Positions 15,492-18,827 of a DNA stretch of 48,878 nucleotides are shown here, piece by piece (within the stretch, counting starts at the first letter, position 1; every line of letters starts with the position of its first letter). This DNA comes from Chloroflexota bacterium (lineage in GTDB: Bacteria; Chloroflexota; Dormibacteria; Dormibacterales; Dormibacteraceae): contig VBHJ01000014.1 in assembly GCA_005887685.1 (NCBI GenBank), forward strand, positions 1 to 48,878, read 5' to 3'. Below the pieces are notes generated by a model, which worked only from the letters and a program-made list of their open reading frames with translations, did not search any database and had not been told where the DNA came from. A program made the translations under genes and the position numbers.

Positions 15492-16277
15492 TCAGCTCTG
15501 GCTGGGGTTCGTGCTCATGAGTCCGAACGCCGCGCCTTGCGGGTCCGTAAGAATTGAGAACCGGCCGCCGGGAAAGTCTTGCGGCGGAAGCAGCTCCTTG
15601 GCGCCCAGGCTGACTGCTTTCTGGTGCGTCTTGTCGACGTCGGCAGCACCGAAGTAGACCATCCAGTAGGACGGCACCTCCTTCGGCACCATCGGGTTCA
15701 TCTCCATGCCGCCGGCGATGCTCTCGTCGGCGAGCTTGAACTCGGTGTAGTCGCCCTGTCCTTCGCCCATCGGGCTTACCTTCTCGCCCCAGCCGAAGAC
15801 CTTCTTATAAAACTGCTTTGCCTTCTCGACGCCGCGTGAGTTCAGCTCGGCCCATGAGTAGACGCCGGGCTTGCGCAGCACGTCGAAGCCGTTCATGGTC
15901 TCCGGCTCCCAGACCGAGATGAACGCCCCGGTCGGGTCCTGGAACACAGCCATTCGGCCTACGTCCATGACCTTGAAGGCAGGCGCAACGACCTTGCCGC
16001 CTGCCGCCTCGACCTTCTTGGCCACGGCGTCGGCATCACGCGTGCCGATGTACACCATCCATGCCGATGGAGCGTTTGGATCCTGCGTCCCGCCGATGCC
16101 TGCCACGTCCTTGCCGTCGAGCCTCGCGATCGCGTAGCCGCCCGCGGCGGGATCCTTCTCGGGCTCGGCCTTCCAGCCGAAAAGTTTCGAGTAATAGTCG
16201 CGCGAACCCGATGGATCTGTGCTCGAAAGGTCGATCCATGCGGGCGAGTTGACGACAAACGTCTTCGTGTCGGCCAT
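15492..16277 (-). CDS. Two-domain VOC/glyoxalase-family protein (Cfp30B-like)
   Basis: A 261-aa protein of two vicinal-oxygen-chelate repeats (about 8-125 and 135-255). Each starts with the pattern W-x-(D/E)L...R/V...(Y/F)Y-x-K-(L/V)FGW and contains a W(M)VYxG strand. The pattern matches the 27-kDa antigen Cfp30B and related predicted hydroxylases. Substrate and metal use are unknown. The ATG at 16277 is chosen because AGGAGG lies 7 bases upstream; a longer frame without such a site is rejected. It is divergent from the selenoprotein gene across 117 bp. Confidence 0.88.
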   Translation of the reverse strand: MADTKTFVVNSPAWIDLSSTDPSGSRDYYSKLFGWKAEPEKDPAAGGYAIARLDGKDVAGIGGTQDPNAPSAWMVYIGTRDADAVAKKVEAAGGKVVAPAFKVMDVGRMAVFQDPTGAFISVWEPETMNGFDVLRKPGVYSWAELNSRGVEKAKQFYKKVFGWGEKVSPMGEGQGDYTEFKLADESIAGGMEMNPMVPKEVPSYWMVYFGAADVDKTHQKAVSLGAKELLPPQDFPGGRFSILTDPQGAAFGLMSTNPSQS

Positions 16278-16284
16278 ATGCGTA

Positions 16285-16290
16285 CCTCCT
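16285..16290 (-). promoter_or_regulatory. Ribosome binding site deciding the VOC start
   Basis: AGGAGG on the minus strand, 7 bases before the ATG at 16277. It rules out the upstream in-frame start at 16358. Confidence 0.75.
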
Positions 16291-16394
16291 TGGTACCAGA
16301 GCTGACGCGGGTGCCCTCTTGAGAGCCCCTCCCACCCTTCAACTACCCATTGTGCCACCGGCAGGTTAAGGAATCATGAGAGCCCGCTCAGCGT

Positions 16395-17024
16395 ATGAAT
16401 AGAGCGATGGCCGAAGCCCGCCCTGTCGATCTGGTCATCTTCTCTGACTACGTTTGACCCTGGTGCTACATCGACTCGGTCCGAGTCGAGCAGCTGGAGA
16501 GCGAGGGATTGGTCCATGTCACGTGGCTCCCCTTTGAGCTTCATCCCGAAGCCCCGCCCGAAGGCATACCGCGCGATGCGTACTTCGGACGCGCGCGCTC
16601 GGAGCGCATGCATTCGCACCTTCAGTCGATCGCAGAGTCGGTCGGATTGCAGATGCATTCGCGCGACGTGATCATCAACTCACGCCGCGCGCTCGGCGCC
16701 GCGGAGTTTGCGCGCGAGCGCGGCAAGTTCGAGGACATGCACCACGCGCTCTTCAAAGCGCACTGGGAAGGCAGCGGCCGGCTCGAGGACGTCGACGACC
16801 TCGTTCGCATCGGCACGACGGTCGGTCTGGATGGCGGCCCCCTGAGAAGCGCGGTTGAGGAGCATCGTTACGACCCGGTGATCGACGAGAACAGGCGAAT
16901 GGCGAGCTCAGTGGGCATCGACGCGATACCGGCGCATATCTTCGGCCGCCGCTACCTCGTTCTCGGCGCGCAGCCCTACGAGGTGCTGAAGCAGGTCGTC
17001 GACCGGTTGGCGGCAGAGAAGTGA
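16395..17024 (+). CDS. DsbA/FrnE-like thiol oxidoreductase with a predicted selenocysteine (UPWC)
   Basis: Read with the TGA at 16455-16457 as selenocysteine, this is a 209-aa thioredoxin-fold protein of the FrnE/DsbA type. The N-terminal strand VDLVIFSDYV leads to Sec21-Pro-Trp-Cys24, where relatives have CPWC. Then come WLPFELHPEAPPEG (the PF-x-L-x-P mark of FrnE), the inserted helical domain (about 60-170), and the cis-proline strand GIDAIPAHIFGRRY. A plain gene caller would start at 16509 and lose the active site. A SECIS-like hairpin follows the TGA, and a Sec-type formate dehydrogenase is encoded nearby, so Sec decoding is likely. No signal peptide is seen, so it probably acts in the cytoplasm. 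The alternative start is the ATG at 16407. It overlaps the BtuF-like gene by GTGA. A nonsense-mutated Cys codon is the main alternative. Confidence 0.8.
16471..16489 (+). promoter_or_regulatory. Predicted bacterial SECIS hairpin of the FrnE-like gene
   Basis: Starting 13 nt after the TGA there is a perfect inverted repeat with 9-nt arms (TCGACTCGG / CCGAGTCGA). The apical part reads GGTCC, so the loop presents G-U-C about 21-23 nt after the TGA. In E. coli fdhF the essential GGU of the SECIS loop lies about 19-21 nt after UGA within a very similar loop. The hairpin sits inside the coding frame, as bacterial SECIS elements do. Confidence 0.72.
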
Positions 17025-17857
17025 GGATCGTCTCGCTCTTGCCAAGCGCGACCGAATCGCTTTTTGCGCTCGGCCTGGGCGATCAGCTGGTCGCCATCAC
17101 GCATGAGTGCGATTACCCGCCAGAGGCTGCGTCGCTGCCGGTCGTCACCAGGTCGACCCTCGACCTGGTCGGCCGAAGCGGGGCGCAGGTCGACGACCTC
17201 GTGGCGCTCGCGGCAAGAGATGGACGCTCCCTCTACGAGGTCGACACCGACGCGATCCATCGCCTCGACCCGGACCTCGTCGTGGCCCAGGACATTTGCG
17301 ACGTGTGCGCGATTCCCGCCGACCAGGTGGCCGACGAGCTCGCCGGCGTACGCATGATCCGGCAGCATCCGCATTCGCTTGCCGATGTGCTCAGCGACAT
17401 CGAAGAGCTCGCTGACGCGTGCGGCTCGGACTCGACTCCCCTGATGGCGCAGCTGCGAAGGCGCATCGAGGCGGCATCGGTGAAGGCTTCAGCGCTGCCT
17501 CGTGTGCGGGGCGTCTTCCTGGAGTGGTTGGACCCGCCCTATCGCGCGGGACACTGGACGCCGGACCTCCTGTCGCTGGCGGGGATCGATGACCCGCTGG
17601 CCAGGCCGGGAGTGCCGTCGGTGGCGCTCTCCTGGGACGACGTGAGGAGGGCACAGCCTGCCTTACTCGTCATTGCGCCTTGCGGCTTTGACAGGGATCG
17701 CGCCCAGCGTGAGGCGGACTCGCTCACCCACGCGATCGACTCCACCGGAGCCGTCAAGGTCGTCGTGCTCGACGGCTCCGCTTATTTCAACCGGCCCGGG
17801 CCGCGTCTGGTCGACTCGCTCGAAATCCTCGTTTCGGCTAGGACCGAAAGACCCTGA
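17021..17857 (+). CDS. BtuF-like cobalamin/metal-chelate-binding protein
   Basis: A 278-aa protein of the class III periplasmic-binding fold (BtuF/FhuD type). The start RIVSLLPSATESLFALGLGDQLVAITHECDYP is the hallmark of the cobalamin-binding subgroup, and the second lobe has VFLEWLDPPYRAGHWTPDLLSLAG. No signal peptide or lipobox is present and no BtuCD permease lies nearby, so it may be a cytosolic binding protein or enzyme of this fold instead of a transporter receptor. The GTG start overlaps the selenoprotein stop as GTGA, which couples the two. Its end overlaps the convergent ArsR-type gene by 20 bp. Confidence 0.82.
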   Translation: MRIVSLLPSATESLFALGLGDQLVAITHECDYPPEAASLPVVTRSTLDLVGRSGAQVDDLVALAARDGRSLYEVDTDAIHRLDPDLVVAQDICDVCAIPADQVADELAGVRMIRQHPHSLADVLSDIEELADACGSDSTPLMAQLRRRIEAASVKASALPRVRGVFLEWLDPPYRAGHWTPDLLSLAGIDDPLARPGVPSVALSWDDVRRAQPALLVIAPCGFDRDRAQREADSLTHAIDSTGAVKVVVLDGSAYFNRPGPRLVDSLEILVSARTERP

Positions 17858-18827
17858 CCAGCGATTCTTGGGCGTCGGAGAAAAGCCGGCGCAGCCCGTC
17901 CTCGCTCGCGCTGAGCTTTGCACTGCGGCCCACCGTCTTCTCCTCGAGCAATCCCGACTCGCGAAGCACCTGCACGTGAGCGCTGACCGTGGGCTGCGAG
18001 AGGTGAAACTGTCGTGCGATCTCGGTGACTGAAGCCGGCTCACGGGCCAGACGCAGCAGGATGGCAAGCCGCGTGGGATCGGCCAGGGCTTTGATGCTGG
18101 ACGAGATCTCGGCGGCCACCTTGCGGTAAGAGGGCTCGTCGTGACGAATTCCCTGGCCGGCGAAAACCGTGCCGTCCAGATCAAGGACGTGGATCTTGCC
18201 GCCGAACCAGCACGGCGTGAGGATGAGCTTGCCCTCCTCGGCGGCTGTATCGGCGAGCGCATCGATCTGCGGCCGGCCGGCCCACAGCGTGGGCATCCCG
18301 AGCAGCTGGAGGTAGGTGACGCCGTCCTGGAGCGCCCGCGTCCAGCGCTGCGCCTCGGCGATCACGGCGGGCCTCCCCTCTGCCTCCCACTCACGTTCGA
18401 CCGCGCTCCACATCTCAGTCAGCAGCTCCACGTAGCGCTTTCGCACGGCCGGGTCCGCGCGGAGCCTGGACAGGCGGGATCGCGTCGCCTCGAGCTCGGC
18501 GGGACTCTCCGAGCGCAGGGATGGAATCTCCGACCCATCCAACATCGCGTCATCGATTCGCGCGAAGAAGCGCCCGAGATCGAGGTCCAGCATCGTGCCG
18601 GAGCGCTGGGCCAGGACGATCAGCTCGGTGGAGTACCGCGTCACGTCGTCGCCCCTGAGGCGGGCGAGCTCGGGACCGAGGCTGAGGCGCAGGGCCTCGA
18701 GGGGGGCGAAGGCGTCTTCATGCTCGTGGCCGGCCTGGGCGAAGTGCAGGACCCACATCAGCTCGAGCGGCGCGGAGGGGGCGACCCTGATCCGGCTTTC
18801 CCGGGTGTCGTCGTCTAAGGCTGGCAT
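17838..18827 (-). CDS. ArsR-type regulator with a long N-terminal domain
   Basis: A 329-aa protein whose C-terminal third (about 240-310) is a winged helix with ALADPTRLAILLRLA, VTEIARQFHLSQPTVSAHVQVL and GLLEEKTVGRSAKL, as in ArsR/SmtB regulators. The N-terminal ~230 residues are helical and acidic and resemble the extended N-terminus found in some actinobacterial ArsR-type proteins; I cannot name its ligand. No obvious metal-binding Cys cluster is present. The promoter carries a 13-bp inverted repeat that may be its own operator. Divergent to a 75-aa gene. Confidence 0.84.
   Translation of the reverse strand: MPALDDDTRESRIRVAPSAPLELMWVLHFAQAGHEHEDAFAPLEALRLSLGPELARLRGDDVTRYSTELIVLAQRSGTMLDLDLGRFFARIDDAMLDGSEIPSLRSESPAELEATRSRLSRLRADPAVRKRYVELLTEMWSAVEREWEAEGRPAVIAEAQRWTRALQDGVTYLQLLGMPTLWAGRPQIDALADTAAEEGKLILTPCWFGGKIHVLDLDGTVFAGQGIRHDEPSYRKVAAEISSSIKALADPTRLAILLRLAREPASVTEIARQFHLSQPTVSAHVQVLRESGLLEEKTVGRSAKLSASEDGLRRLFSDAQESLVRVFRS

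What the first reader, a model, noticed from the sequence alone, without database searches (positions are those of the whole stretch)
16395..17024. DsbA/FrnE-like selenoprotein with a UPWC active site, hidden by an in-frame TGA
The frame MAEARPVDLVIFSDYV stops at TGA (16455) and then continues with PWCY and a full FrnE-like protein. The TGA replaces exactly the first Cys of CPWC, the only place where Sec would make chemical sense. The rest of the frame is intact for 188 codons, with FrnE marks and the cis-Pro strand, so it does not look like decay. A SECIS-like hairpin follows, and a Sec formate dehydrogenase lies 20 kb away. Sec in the attacking position would lower the pKa and redox potential. 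Sec-containing thioredoxin-fold proteins are known, but I do not know one in FrnE relatives coupled to a BtuF-like gene.
Basis: partly seen in the sequence, partly recalled or inferred. Interest (0 to 1): 0.9.

Follow-up and report, generated by a model that had tools for sequence, protein, structure and literature searches.

The report
Selenocysteine-containing FrnE-like disulfide oxidoreductase
A soil bacterium related to the Chloroflexota makes a thioredoxin-fold enzyme whose key cysteine is replaced by selenocysteine, read from a TGA that looks like a stop codon; the reading is almost certainly right, and it adds a large, little-noticed branch to an already described selenoprotein family.

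Summary
A 209-residue DsbA/FrnE-type frame (16395-17024) is interrupted by one in-frame TGA (16455-16457) at the first Cys of CPWC. The same TGA sits in all 29 readable orthologs from the same family of genomes, and 54 of 84 phylum genomes with a homologue carry an in-frame TGA form; the others that were read mostly have Cys there. A 7-bp hairpin with a GGUCN-type loop begins 13 nt after the UGA. It keeps its pairing through compensatory changes across distant relatives (41 double-change cells, against 6.3 in shuffles). The genome has tRNA-Sec(UCA), selA, selB and selD. AlphaFold gives the FrnE fold (TM 0.88 to D. radiodurans FrnE). So this is a real selenoprotein, not decay. DsbA-like UxxC selenoproteins were reported in 2005-2008, so it is a new member of a known kind, here the common form across a phylum sample. 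It most likely works as a cytosolic disulfide reductase/isomerase with Sec as the attacking residue. The BtuF-like neighbour overlaps it, but is adjacent only in part of one lineage, so a functional tie is unproven. A separate Sec gain appears in canonical FrnE of two relatives.

The parts
16395..17024 (+). Gene for the FrnE-like selenoprotein; ATG 16395 or, more likely, ATG 16407; stop TGA 17022-17024
   Evidence: Pfam DSBA E=1e-28; orthologs; AlphaFold pLDDT 93.7, FrnE fold
16455..16457 (+). In-frame TGA read as selenocysteine (residue 21 of UPWC)
   Evidence: TGA in 29/29 readable family orthologs; Cys in other relatives
16464..16466 (+). Codon of Cys24, the presumed resolving cysteine and the only Cys in the protein
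   Evidence: Translation; invariant in A1 and A4
16471..16489 (+). SECIS-type hairpin: stem 16471-16477 with 16483-16489, loop GGTCC 16478-16482
   Evidence: Folding z=-3.1; 93.3% of pair cells formed, 41 double changes against 6.3 in shuffles, slid versions at most 49.8% paired
16929..16931 (+). Codon of the conserved proline (residue 179, AIP motif), expected cis-Pro facing the active site
   Evidence: Invariant in A1 and A4; strand 180-183 in the model
17021..17857 (+). BtuF-like protein without an evident signal peptide, with a CDVC motif; its GTG overlaps the stop of the selenoprotein gene
   Evidence: Pfam Peripla_BP_2 2.5e-7, NCBIfam BtuF 5e-10 but below cut-off; adjacent in part of the family

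Best explanation
A cytosolic FrnE-like thiol-disulfide oxidoreductase in which UGA at codon 21 is decoded as selenocysteine. SelB with Sec-tRNA(UCA) binds the hairpin that begins 13 nt downstream and inserts Sec. Sec21, at the start of the first active-site helix, attacks a substrate disulfide or oxidised thiol; Cys24 resolves the mixed selenosulfide; an unidentified cellular thiol system regenerates the enzyme. Shown by comparative sequence evidence: the Sec codon, the conserved hairpin, the machinery and the fold. Inferred: actual insertion, cytosolic location (no evident signal peptide), reductase/isomerase activity and order of attack (by analogy with D. radiodurans FrnE). Substrates are unknown; the overlapping BtuF-like CDVC protein is a candidate only.
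For: TGA in 29/29 readable family orthologs. 54 of 84 phylum genomes with a match have a TGA form; in the loci read out, the TGA replaces the first Cys of CxxC and other forms read Cys there. tRNA-Sec(UCA), selA, selB, selD, itself with an in-frame TGA. 52 of the 54 Sec-form genomes have selA (counted from listings; exceptions are drafts G005 and G248). Covarying hairpin; at least 6 of 7 pairs in 54/66 distinct Sec forms against 2/17 Cys forms. Raised synonymous-codon identity there, 0.81 against 0.55. FrnE is the best solved relative by sequence (1e-22) and by fold (TM 0.88).
Against: No protein or selenium-label evidence. Cys forms are on average more distant than Sec forms, so the Sec/Cys hairpin contrast is partly phylogenetic. 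12 of 66 distinct Sec forms do not fit the main stem register; some clearly have a shifted hairpin, a few have no obvious one. The C-terminal CX4C motif of D. radiodurans FrnE is absent, so regeneration must differ. Two Sec-form draft genomes lack a selA hit.
Confidence: 0.96

Rival explanations
1. Pseudogene or sequencing error: a real TGC or TGT was lost and the protein is dead or misread.
For: One ortholog (L043) has a one-base deletion after the TGA and G019 has only C-terminal fragments; these are drafts.
Against: The same TGA in 29 readable orthologs with a conserved protein and in many families of the phylum; covarying hairpin.
Confidence: 0.01
2. UGA is read through as another amino acid (Cys, Trp), or UGA is a general sense codon in this organism.
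For: Nothing beyond the open frame.
Against: The same gene ends at TGA; a tRNA-Sec with UCA anticodon is present; the TGA sits where Sec makes chemical sense; the hairpin is SECIS-like.
Confidence: 0.02
3. The selenoprotein and the overlapping BtuF-like protein form one functional unit: the FrnE-like enzyme maintains the CDVC cysteines of the BtuF-like protein, perhaps in cobalamin or metal handling. (This adds to the best explanation and does not exclude it.)
For: GTG/TGA overlap in the window; same order and close spacing in several relatives; adjacent in reverse order in G032; CxxC conserved in the BtuF-like protein; a CxxU BtuF is a listed selenoprotein family (PMC13188914).
Against: Adjacent in only 8 of 25 named loci; on different contigs or absent in other genomes with the selenoprotein (G030, G040, G058; G001, G007, G010); BtuF-like without it in G024, G025, G036; not seen adjacent outside the family among the listed hits.
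Confidence: 0.15
4. It is not a disulfide oxidoreductase but a related DsbA-fold enzyme such as a kappa glutathione transferase or 2-hydroxychromene-2-carboxylate isomerase.
For: These folds are also hits (TM about 0.64-0.77).
Against: Both redox positions (21 and 24) are invariant; FrnE is much closer by sequence and fold.
Confidence: 0.04

Closest known systems
DsbA-like selenoproteins (UxxC, COG2761/PF01323; Sargasso Sea 2005, GOS 2008)
   Same: DSBA domain, Sec in place of the first Cys of CxxC, bacterial SECIS immediately downstream
   Different: Reported from marine metagenomes and a few sequenced bacteria (e.g. Anaeromyxobacter, Desulfovibrio, Desulfotomaculum); here it is the common form across a sample of a Chloroflexota-type phylum. 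The papers' own sequences could not be aligned here.
FrnE of Deinococcus radiodurans (DR_0659, PDB 5cnw)
   Same: Fold, position of the CPWC motif, no evident signal peptide
   Different: Sec for the first Cys; shorter; lacks the C-terminal CX4C motif; about 30% identity; the canonical FrnE signature belongs to a separate clade
SCO1869 probable DsbA oxidoreductase (PDB 3gl5)
   Same: Fold and position of the CPWC motif
   Different: Cys in place of Sec; 27% identity in the fold alignment
Rcas_1661 thioredoxin-like (seleno)lipoprotein NF041057
   Same: Thioredoxin-fold (seleno)protein family
   Different: Score 41 against a cut-off of 190: not a member

Membership tests
DsbA-like selenoprotein (UxxC) | PF01323 DSBA domain | tested here: met
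   100.9 bits against cut-off 25.6
DsbA-like selenoprotein (UxxC) | In-frame UGA at the first Cys of CxxC, with Cys homologues | tested here: met
DsbA-like selenoprotein (UxxC) | Bacterial SECIS hairpin just after UGA with G in the apical loop | tested here: met
DsbA-like selenoprotein (UxxC) | Sec machinery in the genome | tested here: met
DsbA-like selenoprotein (UxxC) | Sec found in the protein (75Se, mass spectrometry) | not testable with these tools
   needs expression
FrnE subfamily | FrnE fold and closest solved relative | tested here: met
   5cnw 1e-22; TM 0.86-0.88
FrnE subfamily | CP(W/F)C active site | tested here: inconclusive
   UPWC: same place, with Sec for the first Cys
FrnE subfamily | C-terminal CX4C (present in many, not all, FrnE; PMC8945050) | tested here: not met
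   Only one Cys (C24) in the protein
FrnE subfamily | Falls in the clade with the canonical EIWSDVVCPWCYIGKRRFE signature | tested here: not met
   That clade (support 100/100, branch 1.94) excludes it; hence FrnE-like, not FrnE proper. DrFrnE itself was not in the tree.
FrnE subfamily | cd03024 domain | not testable with these tools
   CDD is not on hand
Rcas_1661 (NF041057) | Curated score cut-off | tested here: not met
   41 against 190 bits

The most novel reading that the evidence does not exclude
A phylum-wide Sec-FrnE-like branch whose physiological partner, at least in this lineage, is a cytosolic orphan BtuF-like protein with a redox-active CxxC. This would be a selenium-dependent redox switch on a cobalamin- or metal-binding protein, built from two protein families each listed elsewhere as selenoproteins.
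Probability: 0.12. Interest if true: 0.65.

Novelty: new member of a known kind. Interest (0 to 1): 0.38.

Why it matters
It shows a Sec-containing FrnE-like enzyme as the common form in a phylum sample of mostly uncultured bacteria, where the stop codon will usually truncate or hide the gene in automatic annotation. The set of Sec and Cys forms (at least six changes forced by well-supported branches) is material for asking when Sec is gained and lost, and the covarying hairpins are a clean set of bacterial SECIS elements. With only U21 and C24 as redox residues, the enzyme is a simple case for testing what Sec adds to FrnE-type chemistry.

Tried and rejected
Pseudogene and sequencing error (rejected: conserved TGA in many genomes). 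UGA as a general sense codon (rejected: TGA is the stop of this very gene). Rfam scan of the region found nothing. Promoter scan of 16250-17900 found no sigma-70-type site. The first genome search used a wrong family accession guessed from memory (NF007980 is PRK10707) and carries no information. BtuF coupling across the phylum: looked for and not found. Sec in the BtuF-like protein itself: none in the CxxC motif of the proteins read out. The covariation alignment A3 holds 58 of the 66 distinct Sec forms; left out were three with a shifted hairpin (L191, L193, L198), three of one divergent group (L195, L199, L202; their relative L200 was kept) and the two canonical FrnE Sec forms (L218, L219).

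Full report
OBSERVATION. The frame from 16395 reads MNRAMAEARPVDLVIFSDYV, then TGA at 16455-16457, then PWCYIDSVRV... for 188 codons to TGA 17022-17024. Read with TGA as Sec it matches Pfam DSBA at E=1e-28. The protein has one Sec (U21) and one Cys (C24), and nothing that looks like a signal peptide. The ATG at 16407 is a likelier start than 16395, since several orthologs align only from there.

IS THE TGA REAL. In the 42 genomes of the same family, all 29 full-length orthologs whose region could be read show YV-TGA-CC-P(W/F)CY at 53-89% protein identity. One further ortholog, L043, has a one-base deletion directly after the TGA. In 301 phylum genomes, 84 have a match at 1e-20: 54 have an in-frame TGA form and 30 have forms with no stop (counted by reading the listing). 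In the loci read out, the TGA replaces the first Cys of CxxC, and the other forms read TGC or TGT there. Relatives named are Chloroflexi and Candidatus Dormibacterota metagenome-assembled genomes, so the window very probably comes from such a bacterium (inference).

MACHINERY. The genome holds tRNA-Sec with anticodon UCA, selA and selB next to each other on contig C20, and selD, which itself carries an in-frame TGA in a G-U-ACK context. A formate dehydrogenase with Sec (TGA 35490-35488, ARV-U-HGPT) lies in the same window. Of the 54 Sec-form genomes, 52 have selA; the exceptions, G005 and G248, are draft assemblies (counted from the listings).

SECIS. The stem begins 13 nt after the last base of the UGA, and the loop 20 nt after it: stem 16471-16477 with 16483-16489, loop GGUCC. 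Folding of this stretch has z=-3.1, although the longer 60-nt stretch is not exceptional at z=-1.2. All 29 family orthologs form it with at least 6 of 7 pairs. Across 58 distinct Sec forms, 93.3% of pair cells are standard pairs, with 41 double-change cells against 6.3 in shuffles; versions slid by 1-3 columns reach at most 49.8%. The clearest compensations are at columns 22-30 (C-G, U-A, A-U, G-C) and 23-29 (C-G, A-U). At least 6 of 7 pairs hold in 54 of 66 distinct Sec forms against 2 of 17 Cys forms; Cys forms are more distant, so this contrast is supporting only. Synonymous codons are more uniform over this stretch than elsewhere in the gene (0.81 against 0.55). From memory, the E. coli fdhF SECIS also has a GGUC-containing loop at a similar distance; this was not tested. 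Rfam found nothing here.

PROTEIN. AlphaFold gives mean pLDDT 93.7. The best solved structures are D. radiodurans FrnE (TM 0.86-0.88) and SCO1869, which are also the best by sequence (1e-22 and 1e-13). U21 sits just before helix 22-36; P179 precedes strand 180-183, as expected for the cis-Pro loop. D. radiodurans FrnE is described as a cytoplasmic disulfide reductase whose C-terminal CX4C has a role in regenerating the active site; some FrnE lack that motif (PMC8945050). It is absent here, so regeneration must use something else.

TREE. On a tree of 88 forms the Sec forms of this family of genomes group together. At least six Sec/Cys changes are forced by well-supported branches. A Cys form (L152) nests among Sec forms (a loss). 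Two Sec forms (L218, L219) nest in a canonical FrnE clade otherwise made of Cys forms (a separate gain), though forks inside that clade are weakly supported. Several rows have long branches and unsure places.

NEIGHBOUR. The BtuF-like gene starts at GTG 17021, overlapping the TGA stop. It has no evident signal peptide and carries a CDVC motif. It is adjacent, in the same order, in 8 of 25 named loci, adjacent in reverse order in G032, and separate or missing elsewhere. A lineage-limited gene pair is shown; a functional tie is not. Reviews list a CxxU BtuF as a selenoprotein; no TGA was seen in the CxxC of the proteins read out here.

KNOWN OR NEW. DsbA-like UxxC selenoproteins (COG2761) were found in the Sargasso Sea in 2005, in sequenced bacteria in 2006 and in the GOS data in 2008, and are in the 2026 review. 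That COG2761 is the FrnE group is from my own knowledge. I found no paper in the held library on this branch in Dormibacterota or Chloroflexota, but most subscription papers are missing from it. Verdict: a real selenoprotein, a new member of a known kind.

Noticed in passing
window 35490-35488 (-): Formate dehydrogenase alpha subunit with in-frame TGA (Sec), context ARV-U-HGPTVVSL.
   Followed up: yes
L180: selD of this genome has an in-frame TGA in a G-U-ACK context: Sec-containing SelD.
   Followed up: partly
L218 1-751, L219: Canonical FrnE (EIWSDIV-U-PWCYIGKRRFE) with TGA at the first active-site Cys in two genomes of the same family (G034, G038): a separate Sec gain; no hairpin in the usual register, a stronger one further downstream.
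   Followed up: partly
L043, G003 contig C358: Ortholog with a one-base deletion directly after the TGA; frameshift or assembly error in a 63% complete draft.
   Followed up: partly
L221, L075 (G019): C-terminal part of the DsbA-like protein present twice in tandem in one frame behind a cold-shock-like stretch, with no UPWC part.
   Followed up: no
window 17021-17857: Orphan BtuF-like protein with no evident signal peptide and a CxxC motif; relatives in 114 of 301 phylum genomes.
   Followed up: partly
G024, G025, G036: Family members that have selA and the BtuF-like gene but no UPWC protein match.
   Followed up: no
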